Both the position numbers and the translations under genes were made by a program. 64,000 bases of DNA from Planctomycetaceae bacterium. Lineage in GTDB: Bacteria; Planctomycetota; Phycisphaerae; Phycisphaerales; SM1A02. The stretch lies in assembly GCA_947490615.1 (NCBI GenBank), contig CANLHK010000006.1:124001-188000 (forward strand), in the 5' to 3' direction. The notes under the pieces are model-generated. The model made no database searches and was not told the origin of the DNA. It saw only the letters and a list, made by a program, of their open reading frames with translations. This document shows, in pieces, positions 11,564 to 28,188 of this stretch (position 1 is its first letter; every line of letters begins with the position of its first letter).

Positions 11564-13240
11564 GTGAGCGACCCAGGTCCCAATTCCGTCTTCAACTCTG
11601 GCTTCGGCCGCCGCACCTTCCTCAAAGGAAGTGCGCTCACCACTGGTGCGTTCTTCATCAATTCGAAGTTCACGCACCTTCGCCTCGCGGACGAGCCATC
11701 GAGCCCGTTCACCACGCCATGGGCGCAGCCTTTGGCCTTCACGCCCTACAACGTGCCGCTCCCTGCCTTCGAGCCGCTCGCGGATGTGAACTTCGACAAC
11801 TTCCAGCGCTACGACGAGCTTCCAGCGGCGCACCAGTACAAGGTGCAGATCTGCGAAGCTCTGCACTGCCCGCACCCGCAGTTGGCCTTCAGCCCGAGCA
11901 CGACCTACAACGGCATGTGCCCTGGCCCGACCTTCATGATGCGCTATGGGCAGCCCGTCATCACACGCTTCGAGAACTGCATGCCTCCGGTCATGCCCTC
12001 GTATGGCAGCTGTGATGTCGTCACCCATGTGCACAATGGTCACCACGCTCCAGAATCCGACGGCGGCCCATGGGACCTCTACAGCCCAGGCATCTACAAG
12101 GATCACCACTGGGCCAATGTCTACGCGTCCGATCTCGCGACGGGGCAGCCCGACTCGCGTGAAGCCAAGGGCACGCTCTTCTACCACGATCACTGCCACG
12201 ACTTCACTGGCGCGAATGTGTATCGCGGACTCGCTGGGTTCTTCCTGCTGTTCGACAACTTCGACAGCGGCAACGAGAACGACACCAACCCCGACGCGTT
12301 CCGTCTGCCGAGCGGTGTTCCCGACGGCAAGCGCGTGCGCAATCGCTACGACATCCCCCTGGTGATTTCCGATCGTCGCTACGACGCCAACGGATTCCTC
12401 GTCTTCAACACCATGGAGATGGATGGCCAGCTCGGCGACAAGAACCTGATCAACGGCCGCGTGCAGCCATACTTTGAGGTCGAGCGGCGCAAGTATCGCT
12501 TCCGCATCCTCAACAGCGGTATCTCGCGTTTCTACGATGTCTGGTTCTCCAACGGCATGACCTTCCAGTACATCGCCAACGACGGGAACATGATTCCTGC
12601 GCCGATGACACTGCAGAATGTGAAGCTCGGCGTGGCCGAACGCGCCGACATCGTCGTCGACTTCAGCCAGCTCCCCGCGACCACGACGGAGATCTATCTC
12701 GTCAATCGCATGGAGCAGACCAATGGTCGCGGCCCAACGGGAAACACCCTCCCGATGAACGCCGCGCCCAAGTTGCTCAAGCTGATCATTCGGCCGCAGA
12801 CTGGCATCGTCGACAACAGCCGCGTACCGACCGCGCTGCGTGAACTTCCTCCCATGGATGTTCCCGTTGCGCGCACCCGCGACTGGCACTTCGACCGTTC
12901 CAACGGCATGTGGACTGTGAACGGACAGTTGTTTGACGAGAATCGCTGCAACGCCGCTTGCAAGATCGGCACCGCAGAAATCTGGAACTTCAGCACGGCG
13001 GGCGGATGGGCTCACCCTGTGCACAACCATATGGAAGAGCCGCGTGTGCTCTCCCGGAACGGCAAATCTGTCGTGGGAACCGTGATGCAAGGCCGGAAGG
13101 ATGCGCACCCTCTCTATCCGGGTGACGAGATCTCGGTCTACATCAAGTTCCGCGACTGGCTCGGGAAGTACCCGATGCACTGCCACAACCTCACGCACGA
13201 AGATCACGCGATGATGTTCCGCTGGGATGTTGTGCCCTGA
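11564..13240 (+). CDS. Multicopper oxidase, Tat-exported (copy 1)
   Basis: The 558-residue protein starts at GTG 11564, with CGGAG about 10 bases upstream. The N-terminus is a Tat-type signal (GRRTFLKGSALTTGAFF). All four copper-binding blocks are present: H155-V-H157 in THVHNG; H208-D-H210 in FYHDH; H484-P-V-H487-N-H489; and H539-C540-H541...H545...M550 in MHCHNLTHEDHAMM. This predicts an intact type 1 site and trinuclear cluster that couple substrate oxidation to reduction of O2 to water. The substrate cannot be read from sequence (phenols, metal ions or bilirubin-like compounds are possible). It heads a block of copper and haem genes and is followed by two SCO-type copper proteins. Confidence 0.93.
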   Translation: MSDPGPNSVFNSGFGRRTFLKGSALTTGAFFINSKFTHLRLADEPSSPFTTPWAQPLAFTPYNVPLPAFEPLADVNFDNFQRYDELPAAHQYKVQICEALHCPHPQLAFSPSTTYNGMCPGPTFMMRYGQPVITRFENCMPPVMPSYGSCDVVTHVHNGHHAPESDGGPWDLYSPGIYKDHHWANVYASDLATGQPDSREAKGTLFYHDHCHDFTGANVYRGLAGFFLLFDNFDSGNENDTNPDAFRLPSGVPDGKRVRNRYDIPLVISDRRYDANGFLVFNTMEMDGQLGDKNLINGRVQPYFEVERRKYRFRILNSGISRFYDVWFSNGMTFQYIANDGNMIPAPMTLQNVKLGVAERADIVVDFSQLPATTTEIYLVNRMEQTNGRGPTGNTLPMNAAPKLLKLIIRPQTGIVDNSRVPTALRELPPMDVPVARTRDWHFDRSNGMWTVNGQLFDENRCNAACKIGTAEIWNFSTAGGWAHPVHNHMEEPRVLSRNGKSVVGTVMQGRKDAHPLYPGDEISVYIKFRDWLGKYPMHCHNLTHEDHAMMFRWDVVP

Positions 13241-13395
13241 GTCAGTGAGTTTGAGAGTTCGTCTTCACTCACACCACTTCAAGTACCGCGCTGACCGTCC
13301 TCGTGCACCACATCGTCCTGGTGCGCGAGGCCGGTCGGACGGCTTGATCACAAAGAGCAAGGCGCGCAAGGCGCGGAAAAGAAAGGTCTGCTTCG

Positions 13396-14193
13396 ATGTC
13401 CAGCCCCCATCACGGCGTTCCTGAACGAGAGCCTGTCACGCGTCGCAGCGCGTTTGGTGGACTCCTCCTTCCTGCCGCAGGCATCCTCCTTGGTGGATGC
13501 GCGAGCTCCCTGAAATCGGCATCGAAGCCCGAGGTCGAGATCCCCGAAGGTCGCGGTGCGTTTGTCATGCGTCCCGATGGAACGCGCGCGTTTCGCAACC
13601 ATGAGTTCGTCGATCAAGACGGCAACAAGGTCCGCTTCCAAGACGATCTCGTCGAAGGCAAGATCTTCGGCGCGACCTTTCAATACGCCAAGTGCAAAGG
13701 CATTTGCTCGAACATGACCGAGCAGATGAAGAAGGCGTACGACCTCATGACGCCGATCATGGGGAACCCCGTGCAGTTCTACATGTTTTCACTGGCAGGC
13801 GACTCGCCTGCTGCGATGAAGGAGTTCATGCAGGCGCGCGGCGTCTATGGACTTCCCGGCTGGCGCTTCTTCTCTGGAACGAACGAAGCCATCACCGACA
13901 TTCGCTGGGCCTTCGGCTTTGGCGATCCCAACGAAGAGCTCGACCAGAATCTTGCGGGCCACACGGGCATGGTGCGATTCTGCAATCACAGCCTCGACAA
14001 GTGGTCGGCCTGCCCTGCTCAAGGGAGTCCCGAAGCAACGGCCCGACTGATGGTCCGCATGTTCCCCGCCAACGCGCGGCCGCAACTTCCAAACATCGCG
14101 TCCAAGGCCGCAGCACCAACCTATCGGATGAAGGACTGGGTTCCCGCGAAGCCGCTTGAAGGTCAAGCCGCTCCAGGAACGCCAAGCCTCTAG
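13396..14193 (+). CDS. SCO1/SenC-family copper lipoprotein (copy 1)
   Basis: The 265-residue protein has a twin-arginine followed by a lipobox (LLGGC, Cys35), so it should be a lipid-anchored thioredoxin-fold protein. The copper site of SCO proteins is complete: C100-KGI-C104 plus His189 in AGHTGMVRF. SCO proteins insert copper into copper enzymes or act as thiol-disulfide partners. Placement just after a multicopper oxidase, with no cytochrome oxidase genes in view, suggests it serves the secreted oxidases (inference). The start has AAAGG about nine bases upstream. Confidence 0.88.
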   Translation: MSSPHHGVPEREPVTRRSAFGGLLLPAAGILLGGCASSLKSASKPEVEIPEGRGAFVMRPDGTRAFRNHEFVDQDGNKVRFQDDLVEGKIFGATFQYAKCKGICSNMTEQMKKAYDLMTPIMGNPVQFYMFSLAGDSPAAMKEFMQARGVYGLPGWRFFSGTNEAITDIRWAFGFGDPNEELDQNLAGHTGMVRFCNHSLDKWSACPAQGSPEATARLMVRMFPANARPQLPNIASKAAAPTYRMKDWVPAKPLEGQAAPGTPSL

Positions 14194-14274
14194 GCCGATG
14201 AAGGTCCGACATCCGCGTCATGCCGATTGTGCAAGCGCTGCAGGTCGCGCCGCTGCGTGATTCCGCCGTCGCGC

Positions 14275-14302
14275 TTGCCTCGCCTTGGTGAGGCGCTACA
14301 CT
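14275..14302 (+). promoter_or_regulatory. Candidate promoter of second SCO gene
   Basis: TTGCCT (14275-14280), 16 bases, TACACT (14297-14302). It would give a leader of about 40 bases before ATG 14352, so the second SCO gene may be transcribed on its own. Confidence 0.5.
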
Positions 14303-14351
14303 TCTCGCGCGAGGCACCCATCCACTCAAGCTGAGGGAAGCGAGACCAACG

Positions 14352-15161
14352 ATGTCACATCGCGACGCTGCGAAGCCAGATTCGGACGCGGTTCACCGTG
14401 CACTCACTCGCCGCAGTCTGCTGGCTTCCTTGGTGTTTCCAGCCGCGGCAGTCGCCGCGGGCTGCGCCACTTCACAGAACGCCAAGCGCCAACCCACGAT
14501 CGCGCTGACCGACCATGAGCTCGGCTTTGAACCCAAGCTTGGCGCCACCAAGATGGAAAGCGACGGCACGCGGTCGTTTCGCAACCATCTCTTGCACGAT
14601 CAAGATGGCAACGCCGTGCGCTACCAGGATGATCTCATCCGCGGTCAGATCTTCGCGGCGACCTTCATGTATGTGGACTGCAAGGGAATCTGCTCGGAAA
14701 TGACGGGCAAGATGACCGAGGCCTACGACCTCCTGCAGCCGATCATGGGGCGTCCCGTGCAGTTCTACACCTTTTCGCTCGCGCAAGATTCGTCTGACAC
14801 GCTCAAGCGCTACATGGAAGCGCGCGGTCTCTATGGTCGGCCTGGATGGAAGTTCCTCACTGCGCCGAAGGCTGTCATCACCGACATTCGCTGGGGATTT
14901 GGCTTCTTCGACGCGGATGAAGAGCTCGACTCGAATCTCACCACGCACACTGGCATGGCGCGGTTTGGCAACCACCGTCTGGATCGATGGAGCTCTTGCC
15001 CTGCGTTGGCGAATCCGAAACTCACCGCGCGGAGTGTCGTCTCGCTCTTTCCTTCCGATCAGCGTCCGTACATCGCCGCGCTCGATCGCAAGCAAGCGCA
15101 TCCTGCTCGGAAGATTCCCAACTTTGAGCCGCTGCCACCTTCGACGCAGGGAGAGGGATAA
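14352..15161 (+). CDS. SCO1/SenC-family copper lipoprotein (copy 2)
   Basis: The 269-residue paralogue of the preceding gene keeps the same architecture: twin-arginine (LTRRSLLASL), lipobox VAAGC (Cys38), C110-KGI-C114, and His199 in TTHTGMARF. The two copies share long conserved stretches (such as RDGTRxFRNH-like and DQDGNxVRxQDDL blocks), so they arose by tandem duplication. They diverge most in the signal region and C-terminus, which may mean different partners. The gene lies between copy 1 and the first di-haem peroxidase. Confidence 0.88.
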   Translation: MSHRDAAKPDSDAVHRALTRRSLLASLVFPAAAVAAGCATSQNAKRQPTIALTDHELGFEPKLGATKMESDGTRSFRNHLLHDQDGNAVRYQDDLIRGQIFAATFMYVDCKGICSEMTGKMTEAYDLLQPIMGRPVQFYTFSLAQDSSDTLKRYMEARGLYGRPGWKFLTAPKAVITDIRWGFGFFDADEELDSNLTTHTGMARFGNHRLDRWSSCPALANPKLTARSVVSLFPSDQRPYIAALDRKQAHPARKIPNFEPLPPSTQGEG

Positions 15162-15283
15162 GCACGAGGAGTGAGCCGGAGAGGCGCGGCGCTTTCGCGT
15201 GGACTTCGTCTTGCTCTAGAGATTTCTCACGCTGCTGTGAAGCGCTGCTTGACTTGGTCCACATCCGCGCCAACTTCTCGGTA

Positions 15284-15306
15284 GTTCCTGCACAGGGTGC
15301 AGGAAC
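15284..15306. repeat. Perfect inverted repeat upstream of first di-haem peroxidase
   Basis: GTTCCTGCAC and GTGCAGGAAC form a 10-bp perfect stem around AGG, about 70 bases before ATG 15378. There is no T-run, so an operator or RNA hairpin is as likely as a terminator for the SCO gene. Confidence 0.5.
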
Positions 15307-15377
15307 CGATCGACCTCCGCTCGTCCCGGCGAGTTCGACCGAACCACTTATGCACTTCGAGACGCCAGAGGTGGCGC

Positions 15378-18104
15378 ATGTTCAAGTTGAGCAGCGTGCT
15401 CGTTCGTCCAACTGTCTTTTTTGTAACAGTAGGTTGGCTTCACTGCGCACCCGTCTTGGCGCAGGTCGACCCACTGAGCGTTTTTGAGCCGTCGCTCAAG
15501 AGCATTCCTGTTCCTGTTCCCACGACGCTTGGCGACTACATCGCCGACCGCGATGCGGCGCGTCGCTTAGGCAAGGCGCTCTTCTGGGATGTTCGGCTTG
15601 GGAGTGATGGCGCCACCGCATGCGCCACCTGTCACCATCAGGCTGGCGCCGATCCGCGCCGCACCAACACCATGCATCCTGGCGCCAATGGCGGGTTTTC
15701 CAACGCTGTCACGCCGGGCGCGAATGCCCCAGCCGCGATCTTTCCCACGATGCAGTTTGCCAACACGGCCAACCGCTTCAGCACGGTGCTCCGCAACATC
15801 GACGATGTCGTCGGCAGCGAAGGCGTCTTGCGCGAGCAGTTCCTCGGCCTCAACGCCGATGGCAATGAGGAGTGCGAACACCTGTCAGAACCAGTGTTCA
15901 CTGCTGGTGGCGTGGCCTACCGACAAGTCACGGGCCGCAACGCGCCTTCCGTGATCAACGCGATCTACAACGTCCGCCAGTTTTGGGATGGCCGCGCCAA
16001 CGCGTGGTTCAACGGAGTGAATCCCTTCGGAACCGTCGATGACGCTGCGCGGGTCTGGCGCGTCAACGCCAAGACGGGACTTCCGATGCAAGTAAAACTC
16101 TCGATCGATCACGCCTCGCTTGCCTCGCAGGCGGTCGGTCCCGTGAACAACGATGTCGAGATGGCCGCGCATGGCCGCGGTTGGATCGATGTGGCGCGCA
16201 AGCTGCTCAACACGAAAGCGCTCGCCACGCAGGAAGTCAGCCCGCGCGACAGTCTCCTCGGCGCGCTCGCGGCTCCCTCGACTGGGCTCACGCTGCGCTA
16301 CGACGAAATGATCGCTGCAGCGTTTCATCCGCACTGGCGCTCGAGCATCGAAGTGACGGCAGGCCTCACCATGCTCGAAGCCAACATGCCGCTGTTTTTC
16401 GGCCTTGCGGTGCAGGAATACCAAGCAACCTTGGTGTCGAACGACTCCCGCTATGACCAGTGGATTGAGCGCAACGGCCCCAACGGTGGCGCGCCTGATC
16501 TCTTCACAACGCAAGAACTCCGCGGCATGCGGCTCTTCTTCAATCTCGACCCGACGCTGCCTGACACCAACTGCAGAGCATGCCATCTGAGCGCGCTCTT
16601 CTCGGTCGCGACCTACGCGGGGAAAGTCGGCGGCGGTGGCGGACACAACGGCGCTGGTGCTTTTCCTGGCGCAGTCGACAGCGACGGCGACACCTTTCCT
16701 GACATCATCGATGCGTTCCCCATGGATCCCACCGAGTGGCTCGACACCGACCACGATCACATCGGCAACAACGCTGATCCCGATGATGACAACGACGGCA
16801 TGCTCGACGCGGTCGATCCGTTTCCACTCGACGCGCTCAACACGCCAGAGGGCGCCGGGACTTTTCCCAACGCGCAGTTTGCACCGCAGCCGATCGCGTT
16901 CATGCCCGATCTTGCGGGCATGCACAAGCGCACCATGATGTTTCAGGAGCCACCGATGGGCTACGAACCAGCGGTGCGACCGCTCGACTTCACGCTCACT
17001 GGTGATGGCGTGCGGCTCTACGATCCGATCGGCGCTCTCGTCCTCCATGTGCCGATGATCCCGCGCAGCTTTTTCCCGTGCAATTTCATCTTTGCGCCTG
17101 AGGTGCCGATTCCATCGCTCGGGCCAACCGCAGCGTTGCTGATCGACGCACGCACCGTCAACTGCAGGATGTCGCTCAGCATCGCCCTCTTCAACTGCCC
17201 GCTCGGAAGCTACCGCGTCACCATCGACGGCATCGATCGCGGCACGCTCGTCTCCGATCCGCTGACGATGTACGACGAGGGCTTCTACAACATCGGTGTG
17301 CGGCCAACGGGAGAGGATCTCGGCGTTGGTGGTGCGCATCCCAATGGCACACCGCTCGCGGCGTCGCGCAGACTGCTCGTGCACAACTTCCTCCCTGAGT
17401 TCGGGCAGCTTTGGAGTGGCGGCAATCTTGCCAACCATGTCAATGGCTCGTTCAAGACACCGTCGTTGCGCAATGTCGAACTCACGGGTCCCTACTTCCA
17501 CAACGGCGGCGCCGCGACGCTCGAAGATGTCATCCGTCTGTACAACCGCGGCGGCGACTTTCACACCGCCAACAAGATCGACCTCGCGCCCGCGATGTTG
17601 GCGATGGACCTCAACGAGGGACACATCACCGATCTCGCCTCGTTCCTGCGCACACTGACCGATGAGCGCGTGCGCGACGAGCGCGCACCCTTCGATCACC
17701 CTGCTATGCCATTGGCCAGCGGTGGCCAAGTTCCCGCCATCGGTGCGGAGGGTCGCGCCGACGGCTGCGCTCCGCCGCTTCTCCCGTTTGAGGACAACCT
17801 CCTCGTGACCGATCCATGGCTCGGCGACTGTGACCGCAACGGATTGCTCGATACCTGCGAGCTTTCGCGTCACGCTGACCGCGTCGACCGCAACGGCAAT
17901 GGTCTGCTCGATGCCTGCGAACAGCCGCTCTGCGCAGCGGACATCACCAACGATGCGCTCGTCGGCGGTGACGATCTCGCAATCCTTCTCGCGGCGTGGA
18001 ACCAACCAGCTTCCGCAGCCGCCGACGCGGACATCGATCACTCAGGCCTTGTCGACGGAGGAGATCTCGCGATCCTCTTGGGCAGTTGGGGTCCGTGCCA
18101 CTGA
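15378..18104 (+). CDS. Di-haem cytochrome c peroxidase/MauG-like protein with dockerin tail (copy 1)
   Basis: The 908-residue protein starts at ATG 15378, with AGAGGTGG just upstream, and has a signal peptide ending at VLA-Q. The first haem site is C82-AT-C85-H86, the second C399-RA-C402-H403. Family blocks follow (NAPSVINA, FWDGRANAW, FKTPSLRNVELTGPYFHNGG, LASFLRTLTDERVR). Between the second haem site and FKTPSLRN lies a large insertion: TSP3-like calcium repeats (DSDGDTFPD; DPDDDNDGMLDAVD) and a beta-rich stretch. The C-terminus has paired dockerin-like loops. Relatives reduce H2O2 or oxidise proteins, rubber or small molecules; the substrate here is unknown. First of three paralogues. Confidence 0.9.
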   Translation: MFKLSSVLVRPTVFFVTVGWLHCAPVLAQVDPLSVFEPSLKSIPVPVPTTLGDYIADRDAARRLGKALFWDVRLGSDGATACATCHHQAGADPRRTNTMHPGANGGFSNAVTPGANAPAAIFPTMQFANTANRFSTVLRNIDDVVGSEGVLREQFLGLNADGNEECEHLSEPVFTAGGVAYRQVTGRNAPSVINAIYNVRQFWDGRANAWFNGVNPFGTVDDAARVWRVNAKTGLPMQVKLSIDHASLASQAVGPVNNDVEMAAHGRGWIDVARKLLNTKALATQEVSPRDSLLGALAAPSTGLTLRYDEMIAAAFHPHWRSSIEVTAGLTMLEANMPLFFGLAVQEYQATLVSNDSRYDQWIERNGPNGGAPDLFTTQELRGMRLFFNLDPTLPDTNCRACHLSALFSVATYAGKVGGGGGHNGAGAFPGAVDSDGDTFPDIIDAFPMDPTEWLDTDHDHIGNNADPDDDNDGMLDAVDPFPLDALNTPEGAGTFPNAQFAPQPIAFMPDLAGMHKRTMMFQEPPMGYEPAVRPLDFTLTGDGVRLYDPIGALVLHVPMIPRSFFPCNFIFAPEVPIPSLGPTAALLIDARTVNCRMSLSIALFNCPLGSYRVTIDGIDRGTLVSDPLTMYDEGFYNIGVRPTGEDLGVGGAHPNGTPLAASRRLLVHNFLPEFGQLWSGGNLANHVNGSFKTPSLRNVELTGPYFHNGGAATLEDVIRLYNRGGDFHTANKIDLAPAMLAMDLNEGHITDLASFLRTLTDERVRDERAPFDHPAMPLASGGQVPAIGAEGRADGCAPPLLPFEDNLLVTDPWLGDCDRNGLLDTCELSRHADRVDRNGNGLLDACEQPLCAADITNDALVGGDDLAILLAAWNQPASAAADADIDHSGLVDGGDLAILLGSWGPCH

Positions 18105-18293
18105 GCGGCACCATCATGGGGGCTGCGCGGGCATAACCCGATTCAAATCCAAGTTGAAGTGAGCCGCTTGCATCGCGGCAAATTGGAGCGAGTGTTGCGG
18201 TGGCTCGCTTCGTCAAGCGAGCACTGTGCGGTCTTCCGCTCGTCCCGGGGTCTCGTACAACCATGTTTCTCATCGACGCCAGAGGTGGCACAG

Positions 18294-21000
18294 ATGTCTC
18301 ATTTTTCTCCTGCGCGAACGCGCACTGGCTTGGCTTTTGCCATTGCCTTGTGTTCGGCTGGTTCTGCTTTGGCGCAGAATCACCTTGAACCCTCACTCAA
18401 GACCATCCCAATTCCTGAGCCTTCGACGCTCACCGAGTACATCGCTGATCGCGATGCTGCGATCCGACTCGGCAAAGCATTCTTCTGGGATACCCGCGTC
18501 GGCAGCGACGGCGTGACCGCCTGCGCGACTTGCCACCACCAAGGTGGCTCCGATGCGCGCATCAAGAGCACCTTTGGTCCTGGCGCCGACAAGATCTTTA
18601 GCGCTGGAATCGAGCCAGGAACCAACGCACTCGCTGCGTTGTTCCCGCTCACGAAGTTCGCCGATGTCGCCAATCGATTCAGCACCGTGGAGCGCAGCAT
18701 CGATGATGCCGCAGGCTCAGCTGGTGTGATGCGCGAGGACTTCGAGGGACTCAATGCCGAGGGCGGCGAAGATTGCAAGCGCGTGGCAGAGCCGATCTTC
18801 ATCGACCACAACGGCGTGGCGCACCGTCAAGTGACGCACCGCAACGCTCCATCGGTCATCAATGCCGTCTTCAATGTCCGACAATTCTGGGATGGCCGCG
18901 CCAACGCTTGGTTCAACGGCGTGAATCCCTTCGGTCCCGTCGATGACGCCGCGATGGCGTGGCACATGGATTCAAAGACGGGGACTCCCGAACAGATCTA
19001 GCTCACCATCGACCACGGATCGCTCGCCTCGCAGGCGGTTGGTCCTGTGACCGACGACGACGAAATGTCCGCAGACGGCCGCGAATGGGTCAATGTCGCG
19101 CGCAAACTGATGCCGACTCGCGCTCTGATGACACAGAAGGTCCATTCCTCCGACAGCGTGCTCGGGAGCTTTGCGCAGCCCGACAGCGGAATCAATCAAA
19201 CCTACGCAGAGATGATCGACGCTGCGTTCCTCCCCGCGTGGCGCGGCGACGCGGAAGTCGAGCCTGGCATCACACTCACCGAAGCCAATATGTCGCTCAT
19301 CTTCGGTCTCGCGGTGCAGCTCTATGAAGCCACGCTGGTCTCCGACAACTCGCGCTATGACCAGTTCATCGAGCAGGACGGCGTGATGGGAAACGCCACA
19401 GCTCCTGACTGATCAGGAACTCATGGGCGCGCGCCTCTTCTTCAACATGGATCCGCGTCTGCCGCGCACGAACTGCCAGCTCTGCCACATGAGCGCGCTC
19501 TTCACGGGCGCGACCTACGCAGGCGAAGGCGGCGAAGGACCCGATCAACCCGCGATCGGCATCTTCCCAGGCGATGCCGACGCAGACCACGATCTCATTC
19601 CTGATGTCGCCGACGCATTCCCGTCCGATCCCACCGATTGGCTGGACAGCGATCACGACGGTTCGGGTAACAACGCTGACACCGACGACGACAACGATGG
19701 ACTTCTCGATGCCGACGACCCAGCACCGCTTGATCCACTGAACATCCCTGAAGAGGGCGGCTACGAAGGCGGCATCTATCCGCCAGGGCCGATTCTGATC
19801 GAGCACAACATCGCGCAAGTCTCGCAATCGAGCATCACCTTCCGCGAGCCACCGACGGGCGTCGAGCCGACGGTGCGACCGCTGAACTTCCCATTGCTCG
19901 GCAAGGGCATCGATCTCTGCACCAAGAAGGGCACCGTCCTCGCGCACATGAACACGCTGGCACGACGCGCCTATCCCTGCACGCTCGAGCAGAACACTGT
20001 GGTCCCCGCGCCAGCGATCGGCGAGTTTGCAGCACTCATCGTCGACTTCAAGATCGTCGACTGCAAGATGACCATGACGCTGGAGATTTCCGACGCGCCA
20101 CTTGATGTGACCTACATCGTCAAGATCGACGGCGTGGTCCGCGGCACACTCGGCGCAACGCCTTCGGTGTTGTTCGAGGCGGGCTTCGACAACATCGGCG
20201 TGCGTCCGCAGACCGACGACCTCGGCCTCGGCGGTACCCATCCCAATGGCGTTCCAATTTCACCTTCAGTCCGCGTGCAGTCGAATCCAAATCTCACCGA
20301 GTACGGCGATCTCTCGGACGCCGTCGGCATCGAACCGCGTGTCGTCGGCGCCTTCAAGGTTCCCACGCTGCGCAATGTCGAGCTCACGGGTCCCTACTTC
20401 CACAACGGCGGCATGTCTACGCTCGAAGAGGTCATCCGCTTCTACAACCGCGGCGGTGACTTCCATGAGGCGAATGTCGACAACCTCGCGCCCGACATGA
20501 TGGCGCTGGGTCTCTCGGAGACGCACATCTCGGCGCTCGCAGCGTTCCTGCGCACGCTGACCGATGAGCGCGTTCGTACTGAGCAAGCGCCCTTCGATCA
20601 CCCAGCACTTCCGCTTCCCAACGGTGCCCCATTGGCAGCCGTTGGTGCAGGTGGTCGCCCAGAGAGCTGTGGCAAACCTATGGTGACCTTCGCAGAGGCA
20701 CTGGCCAACGAAGATCCGTTTGCAGGCGACTGCGATGAGAACGGGCAACTCGATTCTTGCGAGATCGCTCTCGACGCGCGCCTCGACTTGGACGGCGATG
20801 GAATCCTCGACGCCTGCCAGAACCTCTGCGCCGCGGATATCACGCTTGATGGATTTGTCGACGGAGCAGATCTCGGCACGCTGCTCGCATCGTGGGGGCT
20901 CGCCTCCAACGGTGCAGAAGGTGCGGACATCGATCGCTCAGGTTTGGTCGACGGAGCCGACCTCGCGATCCTGCTCGCAAGCTGGGGCCGCTGCAACTGA
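18294..21000 (+). pseudogene. Di-haem peroxidase/MauG-like protein (copy 2), broken
   Basis: Same architecture as its neighbours: AGAGGTGG Shine-Dalgarno, signal peptide, CATCHH first haem site, CQLCH second haem site, calcium repeats, FKVPTLRNVELTGPYF, dockerin tail. Two lesions break it. An in-frame TAG at 18999-19001 stands where copy 3 has Gln (SQTQLAIDH against EQI-stop-LTIDH). A frameshift near 19398-19402 moves the frame by +1 or -2: comparison with copy 3 leaves four bases where six are expected, and the distance from start to stop is not a multiple of three. Sequence downstream is well conserved, so inactivation is recent or reflects sequencing error. A product ending at the TAG would keep only one haem. 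Confidence 0.85.
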
Positions 21001-21060: not shown

Positions 21061-21595
21061 CGTTTTGAGGGGTCTGGCCACCGAACGGAGGAGCCGCATG
21101 GTCTGGGGCGCCGCCGCCTGCTCCAATGGCGCGGATTACGGGTGCGCACGCCCACGAGCGGATCACCTCGCAATTTTCTGCGATTCTAAGTATCTTTGGG
21201 TACTTGAGTTAGAGCCACGCGCTCTGAAGAAGCGAGCACCATGAACCGGGTTGGTGAGGAGACCCGCACGGGACCTCGGTCGCTCAAGCGTGCAGGAACG
21301 GAGCAAGATTCGTGCTGCGTCGAGCTGGAAGGCGACGCGCGGCACACGCTGTTTGATTTGGCGAGGAGCGAATTGTGCCTGTGGGCGCGTCCGTACGAGC
21401 GCCTTGGCAACGATCCAATCCCCACCGAAGGCGACCACAAACAGCGCGCGAATCACACCTCCGACCCAGAGACTCCTTCGGCGATTGAAGGCCGCCGAGG
21501 GACCATCGAAAGGTCCGAGCGTTTCCCGACTGCGAAGGATGCCGCTCAGCAACGCCGATCGTCCCGGCCACTGCGAAGCGATGCTTCCATCCGCC

Positions 21596-21631
21596 ACCCA
21601 AGAGTCCGCGAGGACTCTTGGGTGTTTTTTT
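21596..21631 (+). terminator. Terminator without an obvious upstream gene
   Basis: The 12-bp stem ACCCAAGAGTCC/GGACTCTTGGGT with loop GCGA is followed by seven T residues (21625-21631). It is a textbook rho-independent terminator on the + strand. Confidence 0.85.
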
Positions 21632-21865
21632 ACCGCCCGCGTCCCTCCGCCGTGAGAGCCCACCGTCTGCACGGTTTGGATCGGCGGTACAAGCAGGCTC
21701 TCTAAAACCTTACATCTCAGCCGCTTGCGCTTGACTCGCCCCGATTGGCCTCTACCTTCTTTCTCGGTGCGCGCTGTGAGTGCGTGCAGCTCGAATCTCG
21801 GCTCGTCACCGATTCGATCGTGCCTTGATCCCCAAGGCCTGTCCAACTCACGTCAGAGGTGTTCC

Positions 21866-24592
21866 ATGCATCTTGGTTCCCGGGGCCCTGTCACAGGGCT
21901 GGTTGCGCCATGCGCGACCTTGTTCTCGCTCGCGCTGACCGTCTGCGCGTTCACAACGAACTCTGCTTCTGGACAGGGCTTTTTCGAGCGCTCGCTCAAG
22001 TCCATCCCCGTTCCTGAGCCGCTGTCACTCAACGACTACATCGCAGACCGCGAGGCTGCGATTCGTCTCGGTAAAGCGCTGTTCTGGGATGTCCGTGTCG
22101 GAACCGATGGCAAGACCGCCTGCGCGACCTGCCACCATCAGGCTGGGTCGGACTCGCGGGTCAGCAACATCGCGAATCCTGGCGCCGACGGCGCGTTCAG
22201 CGCGGGCTTTGCGCCAGGCACTCCAGCGCCTGCGAGCCACTTCCCGATGACGGCCTTCAACAACCCTGCAAACCGCGCGAGCGGTCGAACACGCAGCGTG
22301 GACGACATCGCAGGATCCGCAGGCATCTTGCGCTCGACCTTTGTTGGCAATGGCACCAACGCGGACTTCGTGACCCTCGACCCAGAGCCGATCTTCAACT
22401 CCGCTGCAGGACCCGAGCGTCAGGTGACGGGACGCAACACGCCCTCGGTCGTGAACGCTGCGTTCAACATCCGCCAGTTCTGGGATGGACGCGCCAATGC
22501 GTGGTTCAACGGAGTGAACCCATTCGGCAGTGTCGACTCGACGGCGCGCGTCTGGCAAGTGAACGCCAAGACGGGCGCTCCCTCACAGACGCAACTCGCG
22601 ATCGACCACGCGTCCCTCGCCTCGCAAGCAGTCGGACCCGCGAACAACTCGGTTGAGATGGCAGCGCACGGTCGCAATTGGACCGACCTCGCTCGCAAGC
22701 TTCTCGACAGCCGCGCTCTCGCGACACAACGCGTCAGCGCCAACGACAGCCAGCTCGGCGCGCTCGCTTCGAGTGATGGCGGCCTCACGACGACCTACCG
22801 CACGCTGATTGAGCAAGCGTTTCAGCCGCGCTGGGTTTCCAACGCCGCGACTCCCGATGGATTCTCCGTCACCGAGGCGAACATGTCGTTCTACTTCGGT
22901 CTTGCGGTGCAGGCGTATGAGACGACGCTTATCAGCGACGACTCTCGCTATGACCAATGGATCGATCAGGATGGTCCAAACGGTTTCGCGCCTGGTCTCC
23001 TGAGCAATCAAGAACTCCGCGGGCTGCGCCTCTTCTTCAATGTTGATCCGCTGCTGCCGCCGACGAACTGCCGCGAGTGCCATGTTGGCCCCGCGTTCAG
23101 CGTCGCGACCTATGTCGGCAAGGGCACCAAGCTCGTCGGCAATCTCGGCATGGGTGTCTTTCCTGGCGCGATGGACTCCGACGGCGACGGCTACCCCGAT
23201 CTCATCGATCCGTTCCCGCTCAATCCCGCGGAGTGGCTCGACACCGACCGCGACGGCATCGGCAACAATCTGGATCTCGACGACGACAACGACGGCATCC
23301 CCGATCTCACCGACGCCTTCCCGCTCGATGAGGACAACGGTCTCGGTGAACCAGCTCCAGGCGTCGGCGTGTTCGCACCCGTCCCCATCGCCCTCATGGA
23401 AGATCTCGCTGGAGGCCTCGCGATGGCGATGACCTTCGAGGAACCGCCGATGGGCTTCGAGCCCACCGCGATCCCACTCGACTTCCCGCTGCTCGGTGGC
23501 GGCATCGATCTCTACGACCCCAATGGCGTCCTCCTCACCCATGTGCCACTGCCAGCGCGTTCGGCGATGCCGTGCAGCTTCCTCTTTGAAGCCGTGAAGC
23601 CACTGACGAAACTCGCGCCGATGGCGAAGTTCATCGTCGAGGCGCAGGTCATCAACTGCAGACTCGCACTCGTGATCGGCATCCATGGTTTCCCACTCGG
23701 CGACTACACGGTCACGATTGATGGCGTGCAGCGCGGCGTGCTGCAATCCAAGCCATTCCGCATCTACGACGAAGGCTTCTACAACATCGGCGTGCGTCCG
23801 ATGGGCGAAGATCCTGGCGTCCACGGTTCACATCCCAATGGCGTGCCGCTCTCGGGCACGATGCGTCTCCTCGGCGGAAACACCATGGCGGAGTTCATGC
23901 CCGTCACCACGCCGAGCGGACATCTTCCTGCCGTGAAGAACTCGTTCAAGACGCCGTCGCTGCGCAATGTCGAACTCACGGGTCCTTACTTCCACAACGG
24001 TGGCGTCGCGACGCTCGAGGATGTCATCCGCCTCTATAACCGTGGCGGCGACTTCCACGACGACAATGTGGAGACGCTGGCTCCGTCGATCCTCGCGCTC
24101 GGACTCAACGAGTCGCACATCACCGACCTTGCAGCGTTCCTTCGCACGCTGACCGACGAGCGTGTCCGCGATGAGCGCGCGCCGTTCGATCATCCGTCGC
24201 TTGAACTCTCGGATGGCCGCACCGTGCCAGCCATCGGCGCCGATGGACGCGCCGCCGCATGCGCGACACGGCTGCACACCTTCGCAGAATACCTCTACAT
24301 CACCGATCCGTTCTATGGCGACTGCGACCACAACGGTCTGCTCGATGCCTGTGAGATCACCCGCGCCCCCGAGCTCGATGCCAACCAAGATGGCGTGCTC
24401 GACGCCTGTGTGCTCCCGTGCATCGCCGACATCACCGATGACCGAGCGGTCGACGGCTCTGACCTCGCGCAAGTGCTCGCATCGTGGAATCGCGGCGGAA
24501 AGAAGGCTGGTCGCGCCGACATCGATGGCTCTGGCCTCGTGGACGGCGGCGACCTAGCGATCCTCCTCGGGAGCTGGGGACCCTGCCGCTAA
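21866..24592 (+). CDS. Di-haem cytochrome c peroxidase/MauG-like protein with dockerin tail (copy 3)
   Basis: Intact 908-residue paralogue, the same length as copy 1. ATG 21866 follows AGAGG at six bases and opens a signal peptide. Haem sites are C86-AT-C89-H90 and C402-RE-C405-H406. The calcium-repeat insertion (DSDGDGYPDLID; DLDDDNDGIPDLTD), the C-terminal haem-domain block FKTPSLRNVELTGPYFHNGG and the dockerin pair (DDRAVDGSDLAQVL; DGSGLVDGGDLAILL) are all kept. It is predicted to be exported and to carry two c-type haems, with peroxidase- or MauG-like oxidation of an unknown partner. It faces the multicopper oxidase genes across a shared terminator. Confidence 0.9.
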   Translation: MHLGSRGPVTGLVAPCATLFSLALTVCAFTTNSASGQGFFERSLKSIPVPEPLSLNDYIADREAAIRLGKALFWDVRVGTDGKTACATCHHQAGSDSRVSNIANPGADGAFSAGFAPGTPAPASHFPMTAFNNPANRASGRTRSVDDIAGSAGILRSTFVGNGTNADFVTLDPEPIFNSAAGPERQVTGRNTPSVVNAAFNIRQFWDGRANAWFNGVNPFGSVDSTARVWQVNAKTGAPSQTQLAIDHASLASQAVGPANNSVEMAAHGRNWTDLARKLLDSRALATQRVSANDSQLGALASSDGGLTTTYRTLIEQAFQPRWVSNAATPDGFSVTEANMSFYFGLAVQAYETTLISDDSRYDQWIDQDGPNGFAPGLLSNQELRGLRLFFNVDPLLPPTNCRECHVGPAFSVATYVGKGTKLVGNLGMGVFPGAMDSDGDGYPDLIDPFPLNPAEWLDTDRDGIGNNLDLDDDNDGIPDLTDAFPLDEDNGLGEPAPGVGVFAPVPIALMEDLAGGLAMAMTFEEPPMGFEPTAIPLDFPLLGGGIDLYDPNGVLLTHVPLPARSAMPCSFLFEAVKPLTKLAPMAKFIVEAQVINCRLALVIGIHGFPLGDYTVTIDGVQRGVLQSKPFRIYDEGFYNIGVRPMGEDPGVHGSHPNGVPLSGTMRLLGGNTMAEFMPVTTPSGHLPAVKNSFKTPSLRNVELTGPYFHNGGVATLEDVIRLYNRGGDFHDDNVETLAPSILALGLNESHITDLAAFLRTLTDERVRDERAPFDHPSLELSDGRTVPAIGADGRAAACATRLHTFAEYLYITDPFYGDCDHNGLLDACEITRAPELDANQDGVLDACVLPCIADITDDRAVDGSDLAQVLASWNRGGKKAGRADIDGSGLVDGGDLAILLGSWGPCR

Positions 24593-24621
24593 GACAATCG
24601 ATTCAACTGTCCATCCACACG

Positions 24622-24660
24622 CAACGCGCCGTCGGCAGAAATGCCGACGGCGCGTTGTTT
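24622..24660. terminator. Terminator between convergent genes
   Basis: A perfect 16-bp stem (24622-24637 with 24642-24657) has loop GAAA and a T-rich tail on the + strand. It lies between peroxidase copy 3 (+) and multicopper oxidase copy 2 (-), and may serve both. Confidence 0.8.
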
Positions 24661-24709
24661 CGTGTGCATGTCCATCAGAACGAAGTCGGCAGCCGACAGC
24701 GGCAGCGCG

Positions 24710-26356
24710 CTAGGGCGCGGCGACATCGAAGCGAACCATCATCGCGTGATCTTCATGCACGGTGTTATGGCAGTGCATCGGGTACTTCCCGATCCAGTCG
24801 TGGAACTTCACGAAGACTTCCACTTCGTCACCCCCGTGCAACGGGAACACATCTTTGCGTCCACCGCGCACGGGATCGTCTTCGTCCACATCGTTCGAGG
24901 TCAGGATGCGACCTTCCTCAAGATGGAAGTGGACGGGATGCGACCAGCCACCCGAGGTGGACATGGTCCAGACCTCGGGGCGTCCTTGCACAACGGTCGC
25001 ATCGACGCGCGACGGATCAAAGAGCCTGCCATTGACGGTCCAGAGTCCATTGCTGCGATTGAACCGCCAGGTGCGACGGACGGCGCTCGCAAGTTCCGCT
25101 TCCGAAATCGGGGGATAGGGGCGAAGCGTGCTTGGAACGCGGCTCGGGTCTGCCACCGCGCCTGGGAGGATGCGGAACTGAAGGACGCGTGGCGACTGAT
25201 TGAGCGGGAGCATCTTGTCGCGCGGCCCGCGTGGATCAGGCTGATCCGCGCGGTTCACGAGATAGAGCGTCGTCGTAGAAGCAGGAAGCGTTGAGAAGTC
25301 GACCACGAGGTCGATGCGTTCGGCAGGTGCCATCGGCGAGTTCACCGCGGTGACTGGCGCTTCGAGCAGATTCCCGTCGTTGCCGATGACCTGGTAGGTC
25401 ATGGAGTTCGAGAACTGGAAGTTGTAGAACCGCGACGGCCCGCCGACGAGGAGGCGAAGTCGGTACTTGCGCCGCTTGACTTCGAAGTAGGGTTGGACAA
25501 GGCCGTTCACGAGATCCTTGTCGCCAAGCACGCCATCCATGTCCAGCACATCCATGGTCAAGATGCCGTTGGAATTGAAGCGGCGATCCATGATCACCAA
25601 CGGGATGTCGTGGCAGTCCTGCGTGTTCGCACCATTGGGAACACCGCTCGGAAGCCGCAGCGCGTCGGGATTGGGATCGTTCTCGTTTCCCGTGTCGAGC
25701 TCGTCGAACAACAAGTAGAACCCCGCGAGGCCGCGGTAGGTGTTCTGCGAAGTGAAGTCCATGCAGTGGTCGTGGTACCAGAGCGTGCCCTTGCACTCAG
25801 TTTCATTGCCACCGGCAGGATGATTGGCATAGTGGTGGTCCTTGAATTCCCCTGGACCATAGAAGTCCGTCGGGAAGCCATCGGACTCCGACGCGGTGCT
25901 CGCGTTGTGGAGATGGGTGATGATCTCGCTCGAACCGAATCCTTGGATGACGGCGGGGAGTTCGTTCTTGAAGCGCACGAGAACCGGCTCGCCATACTTG
26001 GCGATGAAGGTCGGGCCTGGAACGGAGCCGTTGTAGCTCGACCAGTTGCTCAGCCCAAGTTGCGGATGCGGACGCGCCGCCACTTAGCGGACCGACATCT
26101 CGTAGTACTTCTGCGGAAGGAACTCATCAAACCGCTGGTGCGCTGCAGGAATGACTGGCGGATCAGTCGGCGAGAGCGTCGTTGGCACCATCCACTGCGG
26201 GAAGGCCAAGCGCTGGATAAACGGAGCCGTCGCAGGACTTGCTGGTGGATCCGAAAGGCGAAACGCCGAAGTCTTGGTGTTGATGAAGAACGCGCCCGAA
26301 GCCAGGGCGGAGTACTGCAAAAACCCACGGCGTGAATGTGATGACCCAGGAACCAT
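24710..26356 (-). pseudogene. Multicopper oxidase (copy 2), interrupted by a stop codon
   Basis: Read from ATG 26356 the gene has a Tat-type signal (SRRGFLQYSALASGAFF) and the start of the oxidase, then an in-frame TAA at 26084-26086. Copy 3 has Glu (GAA) at this place (VAREVQARPH against SVR-stop-VAARPH), so one G-to-T change explains it. The rest is intact, including HLHN, WYHDH, HPVHFH and MHCHNTVHEDHAMM. A GTG immediately follows the stop (TAAGTG), and reinitiation there would give 457 residues without the export signal or first strands. Such a product could not be exported by Tat. Either a fresh pseudogene or a sequencing error. Confidence 0.8.
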
Positions 26357-26535
26357 GGAGAGATCTCCCGCGCTGACGAAGCGCAGTACTGAAAGACTTG
26401 CCCGCTGCGGCAGGCAATTGTTCCAAAGACCGACCAGGCGCACCGCAGGCGTGCATGGCACCTCTGGAAAGCATGTGGGGCGTTGCGCGGCAAGCGCGCG
26501 ATGCCCGTCTCTCGTTCTCTCTCAGTGTGATGACT

Positions 26536-28188
26536 CTACTGACCGCTGGCAACGATCTCGAACTTGATCATCATCATGTGATCCTCGTGGACCCCGTTAT
26601 GGCAGTGCATCACATACTGCCCGATCCAATCGCGGAAACGAAGTGCGACGACCATCTCGTCGCCTCCATGGAGACTAAAGACATCTTTGCGGCCTCCAAG
26701 GACACCGCCGTTGATGTTCTGCCCGTTGTAGCGCAGCAGACGACCCTCTTCGACATGAAAGTGAATCGGATGCGCCCAGCCACCAGGAGTGCTGAACTTC
26801 CAGATCTCTGGACGGCCCTGCACGACGGTCGCGTCAACGCGATGCTCGTCGAAGAGCTTGTTGTTCACAGCCCACATGCCGTTGCGGCGATCGAACTTCC
26901 AGTCGCGACGCACGGCGCCCGCGGTCGGGATGGTCAACAGCGGGCGAAGGTTCTCGGGAACGCGGCTCGGATCGGCGACAGCTCCAGGCTGCACGATGAA
27001 CTTGAGGACACGCGGCGAGGCGTTGAGCGGAAGAAGTGTGTCACGCGGACCACGGCCCGTGTCGTGCTCGCGTCGGTTGACGATGTAGACCTCGGTGGTC
27101 GACGCGGGCAAGGTCGAGAAATCAACGACGATGTCCCAACGCTCGCCAGGACCCATCTCGACCTTGGTCTGCACGATCGGGTGCGGCAAGAGATTGCCGT
27201 CGCTGGCGATGACCTTGAACTCCATCTGATTGGAGAAGCACAAAGTCCAGAAGCGCGCAGGACCAGCGTCGAGCACGCGGAATCGATACTTGCGACGCTT
27301 GACCTCGAAGAACGGCTGCACGCGGCCATTCACGAGCCACTTGTCGCCGAGGTACCCATCGAGATCCATCGGATCCATGGTGAGCACGCCGTTGGAATCA
27401 AAGCGGCGATCGACGAACGCCAGCGGGATGTCGTGGCAATTGTCGGTCTCGCGGCCATTGGGCACGCCACTGGGTAGGCGCAGCGCGTCTGGGTTTGGAT
27501 CGAGCTCGTTGCCGCTGTCGATCGCGTCGAAGTTCAGATAGAGGCCAGCGAGGCCGCGGTAGGTGTTCTGTGCGGTGAAATCGAGCGCGTGATCGTGGTA
27601 CCACAGCGTGCCCTTGCACTCGTTGATGTCACCACTGCTCGGCCAGTTGGGATAGTGGTGATCCTTGAAATGGCCAGGACCGTAGAGTTCCCACGGCGCG
27701 CCGTCGGACTCGGGCGCGTTGTTCCCGTTGTGGAGATGGGTGATGATCTCTGGTGTTCCAAAGCCCTGCATCACATGCGGCATCTCGTTGCGAAAGCGAA
27801 CCATGATCGGGTCGAAGCAACGGGAGATGAAGGTCGGGCCAGGAACACTGCCGCCGTAAGTGGAGAACCTGCTCAACCCAAGTTGCGGATGCGGGCGTGC
27901 CTGCACTTCGCGCGCCACCATTTCGTAGTACTTGGTGGGGACGAACTCGTCATAGCGCTGGTGCGCCTCAGGGATTGGCAGCGGGTCGAGTCGAACACCT
28001 TCCGCAAGAGGAACCGCAAACGGCGCGAAGGCAAGTCGCTGAATGAACGGCGTGGTCGGCGGACTCGCGGGTGCATCCGAGAGCAGGTTGCGCGTGTGCT
28101 TGGTGTTGATGAAGAACGCGCCCGAAGTGAGCGCAGAGAACTTCGCAAACGAGCGCCGTGAGCAAACGTGCTTGTTGATGAAGGACAT
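26536..28188 (-). CDS. Multicopper oxidase, Tat-exported (copy 3)
   Basis: The 550-residue intact enzyme starts at ATG 28188, with GAGG eight bases upstream; a longer upstream frame is unlikely. The Tat-type signal is CSRRSFAKFSALTSGAFF. Copper ligands: H151-L-H153, H198-D-H200, an HPIHFH block, and H528-C529-H530...H534...M539. It is closer to copy 2 than to copy 1 (shared FIQRLAF, PEAHQRYDEF-like and ARPHPQLGLS blocks). Function as for copy 1: O2-dependent oxidation outside the cytoplasm, substrate unknown. It is transcribed divergently from the S8 protease gene. Confidence 0.93.
   Translation of the reverse strand: MSFINKHVCSRRSFAKFSALTSGAFFINTKHTRNLLSDAPASPPTTPFIQRLAFAPFAVPLAEGVRLDPLPIPEAHQRYDEFVPTKYYEMVAREVQARPHPQLGLSRFSTYGGSVPGPTFISRCFDPIMVRFRNEMPHVMQGFGTPEIITHLHNGNNAPESDGAPWELYGPGHFKDHHYPNWPSSGDINECKGTLWYHDHALDFTAQNTYRGLAGLYLNFDAIDSGNELDPNPDALRLPSGVPNGRETDNCHDIPLAFVDRRFDSNGVLTMDPMDLDGYLGDKWLVNGRVQPFFEVKRRKYRFRVLDAGPARFWTLCFSNQMEFKVIASDGNLLPHPIVQTKVEMGPGERWDIVVDFSTLPASTTEVYIVNRREHDTGRGPRDTLLPLNASPRVLKFIVQPGAVADPSRVPENLRPLLTIPTAGAVRRDWKFDRRNGMWAVNNKLFDEHRVDATVVQGRPEIWKFSTPGGWAHPIHFHVEEGRLLRYNGQNINGGVLGGRKDVFSLHGGDEMVVALRFRDWIGQYVMHCHNGVHEDHMMMIKFEIVASGQ

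What the first reader, a model, noticed from the sequence alone, without database searches (positions are those of the whole stretch)
11564..28188. Block of exported multicopper oxidases, SCO copper proteins and dockerin-tailed di-haem peroxidases
Three Tat-type multicopper oxidases, two SCO lipoproteins and three MauG/CCP-like di-haem proteins occupy about 16.6 kb with no other recognisable gene between. All predicted products are exported; the peroxidases carry an anchoring tail. SCO proteins normally serve cytochrome oxidase, yet no such genes are here, so they may load the oxidases. One reading is an extracellular oxidative system coupling copper (O2) and haem (H2O2 or protein radical) chemistry against a polymer, phenol or metal ion. 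Motifs and order are seen in the sequence; the joint function is inference.
Basis: partly seen in the sequence, partly recalled or inferred. Interest (0 to 1): 0.8.

Follow-up and report, generated by a model that had tools for sequence, protein, structure and literature searches.

The report
Copper oxidases with private copper loaders
A planctomycete bacterium carries a conserved block of exported copper oxidases linked to their own copper-loading proteins and to a haem protein, and relatives of that loader in other planctomycetes appear to carry selenium at the copper-binding spot.

Summary
The block is real: three laccase/bilirubin-oxidase-type multicopper oxidases (MCO), two SCO copper chaperones and three di-haem MauG-class proteins at 11564-28344; MCO copy 2 and MauG copy 2 are broken. 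Linkage is conserved: among 16 held genomes of the genus the three families were found in the same six. In 400 genomes of the order, 12 hold both MCO and SCO, side by side in all 12. Neighbouring MCO and SCO trees mirror each other (r 0.88). Ten of ten genus genomes tested have a separate SCO near cytochrome oxidase, so the block SCOs are extra and oxidase-linked. The layout resembles the MCO-SCO operons of manganese and iodide oxidation and the SCO-MauG set of methanethiol oxidase: a new variant of a known kind. Substrate and haem-protein role stay open.

Following SCO through the phylum gave something less expected. At 20 MCO-adjacent loci (19 genomes, 4 families, 14 genomes from one family) the second copper-binding cysteine is an in-frame TGA followed by a conserved SECIS-like hairpin; strong tRNA-Sec matches occur in 18 of the 19. 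This predicts a selenocysteine SCO, not named in the review passages I searched. The window's own SCOs keep cysteine.

The parts
11564..13240 (+). MCO1, Tat-exported three-domain multicopper oxidase (bilirubin oxidase/CotA type)
   Evidence: Pfam Cu-oxidase_2 5.2e-14; profile of relatives hits bilirubin oxidase 2xll at 2.2e-81; Foldseek top hit 6iqz
13396..14193 (+). SCO1, SCO1/SenC-type copper chaperone lipoprotein, CKGIC motif (Cys100, Cys104) and His189
   Evidence: Pfam SCO1-SenC 1.3e-10; Cys100, Cys104, His189 invariant in 13 copies
14352..15161 (+). SCO2, second SCO; groups with the SCO of G014 that has its own MCO, a partner missing here
   Evidence: Pfam SCO1-SenC 1.6e-8; tree
15297..18104 (+). 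MauG1, di-haem MauG/MbnH-class protein (likely start at 15378)
   Evidence: CCP_MauG 3.5e-27; MbnH-family model 1.5e-27 but far below its cut-off
16677..16841 (+). thrombospondin-3-like calcium-repeat insert inside the second haem domain of MauG1
   Evidence: weak match and alignment with insert-free relatives
17922..18101 (+). dockerin-like tail of MauG1 (anchor inferred)
   Evidence: sub-threshold NF041540 match
18159..21000 (+). MauG2, broken copy: TAG at 18999-19001 and a frameshift near 19393-19400
   Evidence: intact relative L015:4400-7132
21725..24592 (+). MauG3, intact di-haem copy
   Evidence: CCP_MauG 3.2e-27
24710..26353 (-). MCO2, broken copy: TAA at 26086-26084 separates the Tat leader from the enzyme
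26536..28344 (-). MCO3, intact Tat-exported MCO of a second clade that has no SCO neighbour of its own
28450..30576 (+). flank: S8 subtilase, next to the block also in G013 and G014
   Evidence: Pfam Peptidase_S8
30691..31521 (+). flank: gene I call a glycosyltransferase by sight, not scanned; marks the same chromosomal site in G000, G008, G013, G014

Best explanation
The block is an exported copper-oxidase module. The core unit is an MCO gene followed by its own SCO gene. The SCO, a membrane lipoprotein, binds copper with Cys-xxx-Cys and His and loads the MCO, independently of the separate SCO that lies near cytochrome oxidase. The MCO then uses O2 to oxidise a small extracellular donor; by analogy with the best-studied MCO-SCO operons this is most likely an inorganic ion (Mn(II), Fe(II) or iodide) or a phenol. 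A MauG/MbnH-class di-haem protein, probably held on the cell surface by its tail, is a regular partner, acting either as maturase or as redox partner of the oxidase. Shown by computation: gene identities, conserved ligand positions, linkage, mirrored trees, a separate COX1-linked SCO. Inferred: copper transfer, substrate, surface location, role of the haem protein.
For: SCO directly behind MCO for 10 of 13 SCO genes in the six genus genomes that have them; the other 3 are second in an MCO-SCO-SCO row. Order: 12 of 400 genomes hold both, adjacent in 12 of 12; the divergent SCO of G252 also has an MCO next door. A scan of 84,980 species genomes gave 10 loci, all with MCO directly upstream, but by length all ten contigs recur under G handles, so this is not independent. 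Phylum: MCO adjacent at 33 of 40 stretches, 3 cut by contig ends, 4 without. Mirror trees r=0.88, 0 of 5000 permutations; the true partners rank 1 of 16 within-genome swaps. A separate SCO 1.6-1.8 kb from COX1 in 10 of 10 genomes tested, of 16 in the genus. MauG core in 10 of the 12 MCO+SCO genomes. Precedents: mnxG and mcoA operons, iox cluster, Slit_1812-1818, mtoX-SCO1-mauG.
Against: MnxG, MofA and IoxA are, as I recall and as PMC9415286 says for IoxA, different MCO kinds from this CotA/bilirubin-oxidase type, so the substrate does not carry over. Two oxidase copies here (MCO2 broken, MCO3) have no SCO neighbour. Four phylum stretches have a relative of this SCO without an MCO (L093, L094, L095, L098). 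G202 and G270 have MCO-SCO but no strong MauG match, and G064 has the MauG without MCO-SCO. In 3 of the 10 genomes the MauG lies on another contig, so linkage there is unknown. No expression or biochemical data exist.
Confidence: 0.68

Rival explanations
1. The di-haem protein is a maturase: like MauG or MbnH it uses H2O2 and a bis-Fe(IV) state to oxidise Trp/Tyr residues of the MCO (or another partner), completing a cofactor or copper site, as proposed for the mtoX-SCO1-mauG operon.
For: MauG/MbnH signature: axial-Tyr position in 10 of 11 aligned copies, WDGR motif in 11 of 11, no CCP-type Met in the aligned segment; best NCBIfam match of the intact copies is the MbnH family model; copper enzyme + SCO1 + MauG is a known operon logic.
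Against: L036 has Phe at the Tyr position. G000 and G013 hold more MCO than MauG copies, and the MCO-SCO pairs at G000:C3 and G008:C62 have no MauG in the stretch fetched around them (the G008 stretch ends with the contig). The scores lie far below the MbnH cut-off.
Confidence: 0.35
2. The block attacks an organic polymer or phenolic compounds (laccase plus peroxidase, lignin- or humic-type chemistry).
For: MCO fold is laccase/bilirubin-oxidase-like; di-haem proteins have peroxidase relatives; exported, with a dockerin-like tail.
Against: Apart from the flanking subtilase, the ten proteins scanned show no hydrolase or polymer-binding domain. RoxA, a polymer-cleaving di-haem enzyme by recall, is only a sub-threshold match, 17-21 bits against 26.7.
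Confidence: 0.2
3. A copper-detoxification set: CueO-like MCO oxidises Cu(I), SCO buffers copper.
For: The CueO model gives the best NCBIfam match of all three MCOs, though far below its cut-off (137-161 bits against 525); copper_res_A matches two of them weakly (34-35 bits against 479).
Against: None of the proteins scanned is a copper efflux pump. Whole-genome copper-resistance content was not tested. Presence is patchy, 6 of 16 genus genomes.
Confidence: 0.12
4. The genes sit together by chance or by local duplication only, with no joint function.
For: Clear local duplications (tree).
Against: Same three families in the same 6 of 16 genus genomes, and MCO-SCO-MauG on one contig again in another genus (G061, G260) with other neighbours and insert-free MauG.
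Confidence: 0.03

Closest known systems
mnxG and mcoA Mn(II)-oxidase operons of Pseudomonas putida GB-1 (PMC11409713, passages read)
   Same: MCO gene with SCO1/SenC genes behind it: mcoA then SCO; mnxG, a beta-propeller gene, then two SCO. The mnxG operon adds a binding protein with a cytochrome c domain; a Peripla_BP_6 protein follows MCO-SCO in G001, with similar genes in L016 and L033.
   Different: MnxG and McoA are other MCO types (recalled); no MauG-class protein is named in the passages. The G001 binding protein has no cytochrome c match, and the L033 copy gave no Pfam match at all.
Iodide oxidase cluster ioxABCDEF of Iodidimonas (PMC9415286, passages read)
   Same: MCO (IoxA) with three SCO1/SenC proteins (IoxB, D, F).
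   Different: No haem protein named in the passages; IoxA is described as distant from CotA, CueO, CumA and CopA.
mtoX-SCO1-mauG operon of methanethiol oxidase (PMC5739008, passages read)
   Same: Copper enzyme + SCO1 + MauG-class di-haem protein in one operon-like row.
   Different: The copper enzyme is SBP56, not an MCO.
OmpB/MofA clusters and Slit_1812-1818 of Sideroxydans lithotrophicus (PMC5566968 section 13 read; PMC12016527 passages read)
   Same: Tandem MCO-type genes + SCO chaperone + cytochrome in one cluster; higher expression in late magnetite than in Fe(II)-citrate cultures.
   Different: The cytochrome is MofC-like, not shown to be MauG-class; function unproven there too.
MbnH/MauG di-haem enzymes
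   Same: Two haem c sites, WDGR motif, axial-Tyr position.
   Different: Here 935-955 aa, with a beta-domain and TSP3-like insert in the second haem domain and a dockerin-like tail.

Membership tests
Three-domain multicopper oxidase (CotA/bilirubin oxidase type) | Copper-binding motifs with all His/Cys ligands and the axial Met | tested here: met
   invariant in 15 aligned copies including MCO1 and MCO3 (ligand roles by homology); PDB profile 2.2e-81; Foldseek (model pLDDT 65.7)
SCO1/SenC copper chaperone | SCO domain with CxxxC and distal His | tested here: met
   Pfam above cut-off; Cys100, Cys104, His189 invariant in 13 copies
SCO1/SenC copper chaperone | Linkage to cytochrome oxidase genes (usual, not defining) | tested here: not met
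   block SCOs lie beside MCO, while another SCO lies near COX1 in 10 of 10 genomes tested
SCO1/SenC copper chaperone | Copper binding and transfer | not testable with these tools
   needs purified protein
CCP_MauG superfamily | Pfam PF03150 above cut-off | tested here: met
   96 bits against 25.6 for MauG1 and MauG3
MauG/MbnH di-haem enzymes | Two CxxCH, axial Tyr instead of Met on the second haem | tested here: met
   two CxxCH in 11 of 11 and Tyr position in 10 of 11 aligned copies; no Met in the aligned segment. Assignment of that Tyr as ligand is by homology.
MauG/MbnH di-haem enzymes | Score above the curated MbnH or MauG model cut-off | tested here: not met
   intact copies 96.5 and 106.5 bits against 363 (MbnH); 70 and 75 against 444 (MauG). 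So 'class', not member of either curated family.
GC-type dockerin-anchored proteins | Score above NF041540 cut-off | tested here: not met
   16.4 and 18.2 bits against 29
MnxG/McoA-type Mn oxidase operon | MCO + SCO gene order | tested here: met
   against the published order
MnxG/McoA-type Mn oxidase operon | Mn(II)-oxidising activity | not testable with these tools
   no assay possible
Selenoprotein (the SCO of other planctomycetes, not of the window) | In-frame TGA at a redox Cys, SECIS-like hairpin, conserved frame after TGA, tRNA-Sec in the genome | tested here: met
   20 loci in 19 genomes; selection in 8 pairs; strong tRNA-Sec match in 18 of 19
Selenoprotein (the SCO of other planctomycetes, not of the window) | selA, selB, selD present | not tested

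The most novel reading that the evidence does not exclude
MCO-SCO operons are a device found across planctomycetes in which the copper loader is, in at least four families, a selenoprotein. The second copper-binding Cys of the SCO CxxxC motif is encoded by TGA and read as selenocysteine (CxxxU), so selenium would sit at or next to the copper being handed to an exported oxidase. The window's genus, in which the five genomes tested show no strong tRNA-Sec match, uses the Cys form and adds a di-haem MauG-class partner instead.
Probability: 0.85. Interest if true: 0.78.

Novelty: new variant of a known kind. Interest (0 to 1): 0.64.

Why it matters
It gives a clear case in which SCO proteins, usually discussed with respiratory cytochrome oxidase, are tied by linkage and mirrored trees to exported laccase-type oxidases, with a haem protein as a regular third partner. 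Several of the nearest records are MAGs with lake or pond names, so the module may mark an unrecognised way these bacteria oxidise metals, halides or phenols in fresh water. The selenocysteine form, if confirmed, would be a new selenoprotein family with selenium at a copper-transfer site, and a direct test of what the second SCO cysteine does.

Tried and rejected
Structure of MauG1: AlphaFold2 with 6 sequences gave pLDDT 34.8 and was not used. No COX1 was found near the 42 SCO stretches with a query from the window's own genome; no positive control in another genome was run, so I do not lean on it. The SECIS-like hairpin shows no two-sided covariation (0 of 6 pairs) because its sequence is almost fixed. 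Folding energies are unremarkable: z from +0.4 to -1.4 at 17 of 20 loci and about -2 at three, against simple base shuffles. The case rests on exact conservation, on a Val codon being GTT in 20 of 20 (background 0-0.42 in the neighbouring MCO genes), and on absence from the 7 Cys-type controls shown. That the MCO frames hold no TGA is no evidence, since they were cut out stop to stop. Rfam gave no match for the hairpin in three of these stretches. Genome searches score only the best first-look candidates: at most 14 per genome for MauG, with up to 346 found, because dockerin-like tails swamp it, 6 for SCO, 3 for MCO; absences are therefore soft. I rechecked MauG with a tail-free query in 25 chosen genomes; for six genus genomes without the block (G003, G005, G007, G009, G010, G011) only stands. 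Of 48 SCO places listed outside the window's family, my 40 stretches cover 42; six were not fetched (in G558, G571, G615, G683 twice, G719). Empty-site test: the flank gene was found in one block-free genus genome (G007), with no block gene in the 17 kb contig (MCO1 was not among the queries); gain against loss is not resolved. The SCO tree leaves open whether Sec or Cys is ancestral (Sec needs 3 changes).
Full report
WHAT IS THERE. The window lies in a 3.26 Mb draft genome (28 contigs, 97% complete). Closely related records are MAGs, several with lake or pond names (Erken, Loclat, La Plata, 'pond'). Block order: MCO1> SCO1> SCO2> MauG1> MauG2(broken)> MauG3> <MCO2(broken) <MCO3. The MCOs match bilirubin oxidase best (profile 2.2e-81; Foldseek E 3.6e-33 on a model of pLDDT 65.7). 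The SCOs match Pfam SCO1-SenC, and in the PDB three SCO structures (best 4hde, 3.8e-9). The di-haem proteins match CCP_MauG, and in the PDB the di-haem enzyme 6e1c (MbnH by recall) and di-haem peroxidases. They carry a TSP3-like insert and a dockerin-like tail (both weak matches).

IS THE SET CONSERVED? In the genus (16 genomes held) strong SCO matches (E <= 8.3e-78) occur in G000, G001, G008, G012, G013 and G014. Block-type MCOs (E <= 5.1e-274) occur in the same six (G005 and G010 have only much weaker MCO matches). The MauG core occurs in the same six (with the limit told under Tried and rejected). G013 has seven MCO, three SCO and two MauG genes in one run. Four genomes (G000, G008, G013, G014) share flanking genes, so the block sits at one chromosomal site there. 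G001 and G012 have a leaner form, MCO-SCO-small tailed protein; in G001 an insert-free MauG lies about 9 kb further on the same contig, in G012 it is on another contig. A scan of 84,980 species genomes with two SCO peptide patterns gave 10 loci, all with MCO directly upstream (four of the ten were read as the same contigs under L012, L014, L016, L017). The most distant, L036 (= G538), is MCO-SCO-MCO-MauG with a short MauG lacking insert and dockerin-like tail.

ORDER LEVEL. Of 400 genomes drawn from the order, 13 have the SCO (E <= 1e-15) and 13 the MCO (E <= 1e-90); 12 have both, and in all 12 the two genes are neighbours. The SCO-only genome G252 has a divergent MCO beside it. In the MCO-only genome G225 one MCO runs up to a contig end; the other has about 650 bases left with no SCO match. 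A tail-free MauG query over 25 chosen genomes gave strong matches in G000, G001, G012, G061, G087, G225, G260, G283 and also in G064, which showed no MCO or SCO. It gave none in G252 or G270 and only weak ones (35-37 bits) in G202, G024, G034 and G062; ten further block-free genomes gave none. With G008, G013 and G014, 10 of the 12 MCO+SCO genomes carry the MauG: on the same contig within about 9 kb in seven (G000, G001, G008, G013, G014, G061, G260), on another contig in three (G012, G087, G283).

WHOSE SCO? Ten of ten genus genomes tested have another SCO 1.6-1.8 kb from COX1; in G000 it shows no significant similarity to the block SCOs (best E 0.2). Distances among 16 neighbouring MCO and SCO pairs correlate at r=0.88 (0 of 5000 permutations). 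Among 16 ways of exchanging partners between paralogues of one genome the true pairing ranks first, though the next (0.870 against 0.882) is close. In the tree SCO2 of G000 and of G008 group with the second SCO of G014, which has its own MCO; that MCO is missing between SCO1 and SCO2 in G000 and G008. So the tandem SCO pair is best read as MCO-SCO-(lost MCO)-SCO, an inference. MCO3-type oxidases form a separate clade of eight without SCO neighbours.

HAEM PROTEINS. In 11 aligned copies both CxxCH motifs and WDGR are kept, the axial-Tyr position is Tyr in 10 and Phe in L036, and the CCP-type Met segment is replaced by YNRGG in 10 of 11 (L036 has YMAGG). This is the MauG/MbnH class; ligand roles are from general knowledge and from passages of PMC6405878. 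The protein could mature the oxidase or work beside it; I cannot tell which.

WHAT IT WORKS LIKE. From papers read in passages or sections: mnxG (MCO, beta-propeller, two SCO1/SenC, a binding protein with cytochrome c domain) and mcoA (MCO, SCO) in manganese oxidisers (PMC11409713); IoxA with IoxB/D/F in iodide oxidation (PMC9415286); three tandem MCO genes with SCO and a MofC-like gene in Sideroxydans (PMC5566968 section 13), and a cluster there with higher expression in late magnetite cultures (PMC12016527); mtoX-SCO1-mauG (PMC5739008); CutO needing its operon partner CutF (PMC8456105, abstract). In the leaner planctomycete cluster of G001 a periplasmic-binding protein (Peripla_BP_6 8e-16; similar genes in L016 and L033, of which the L033 one gave no Pfam match) recalls the mnxG operon. 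Paper searches listed no paper on an MCO-SCO-MauG set in planctomycetes (open-access library, listed rows only).

THE PHYLUM AND SELENIUM. Of 392 genomes drawn from the phylum 33 have a relative of this SCO at E <= 1e-15. I fetched 40 stretches covering all 31 of these outside the window's family. An MCO lies beside the SCO at 33 (upstream, except L099, where it is downstream); at three the contig ends within 0.6-0.8 kb upstream; four lack it (L093, L094, L095, L098). Eleven stretches hold SCO frames with one CxxCH beside MCO frames of up to about 1700 aa; for the one scanned, L091, Pfam finds Cytochrom_C just above cut-off. At 20 loci in 19 genomes (families f23 with 14 genomes, f48 with 3, f55 and f72 with 1 each) the SCO frame has a TGA exactly at the second Cys of CxxxC (CNGIU, CDGIU, CLEFU, CKDTU and others; the 21st locus printed, L069, has Cys). 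All 20 are beside an MCO. Read through, the five given to Pfam match SCO1-SenC at 3e-16 to 1e-19. The frame after TGA is under purifying selection (pN 0.02-0.18, pS 0.35-0.88; 8 pairs). Fourteen bases after the TGA starts a hairpin, GAACCT - [CG]GT[GC]N - AGGTTC, kept in 20 of 20 with one change to a G-U pair (16 distinct 36-base sequences), including a GTT codon that is a minority codon in all 20 neighbouring MCO genes. That bacterial SECIS elements are such hairpins shortly after the TGA is recalled. Cys-type SCOs lack it (7 of 7 shown).

TRNA-SEC. Matches of 62.9-76.6 bits occur in 18 of the 19 TGA genomes. G545 (84% complete) has only 49.4 bits, above the cut-off of 47 but in the range that other tRNAs reach in many of these genomes. 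In G000, G001, G004, G008, G013, G061 and G087 the best is 45.6 bits. Several Cys-SCO genomes also have a strong tRNA-Sec (for example G402, G538, G252), so it is necessary, not sufficient. The search rang in all 14 control genomes and passed the cut-off in 5, so only the strong matches count. NCBIfam gave no SCO selenoprotein model for five read-through proteins. The 2022 and 2026 reviews (PMC9312934, PMC13188914), PMC2398784 and PMC12013277, searched for SCO or SCO1, SenC and copper, name no SCO selenoprotein in the passages returned. Paper searches showed none among the rows listed, but found more papers than were listed.

VERDICT. The block is a new variant of known MCO-SCO(-haem) clusters. 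The most novel point, a predicted selenocysteine SCO in sister operons, lies outside the window but was reached from it.

Noticed in passing
L070-L077, L079-L090 (SCO genes of unnamed planctomycete genomes, beside MCO): In-frame TGA at the second Cys of the SCO CxxxC motif at 20 loci, with a conserved hairpin after it and strong tRNA-Sec in 18 of 19 genomes: predicted selenocysteine SCO.
   Followed up: yes
L091, L092, L096, L097, L099, L100, L102, L103, L105, L107, L108: SCO open frames of 414-560 aa with one CxxCH (likely SCO-cytochrome c fusions; only L091 checked by Pfam) next to MCO frames of up to about 1700 aa.
   Followed up: partly
window 40912-43744: Several stretches resemble the N-terminal domain of the small tailed protein that follows MCO-SCO in L037 (32-42% identity), looking like a local gene family.
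   Followed up: no
L032 (record titled Candidatus Kuenenia stuttgartiensis): This record holds the same locus as G001, which the genome tool places in the window's genus; the title (an anammox bacterium by recall) looks like a wrong label.
   Followed up: no
window 8866-10950: Protein with a dockerin-like tail (sub-threshold NF041540 match) and, by sight, RCC1-like repeats, directly upstream of the block.
   Followed up: no
L037 10124-11446, L034 6754-8067 and 16731-18041, L035 6696-8006: A conserved protein of about 440 aa recurs beside the leaner MCO-SCO clusters; the two copies scanned gave no Pfam match.
   Followed up: partly
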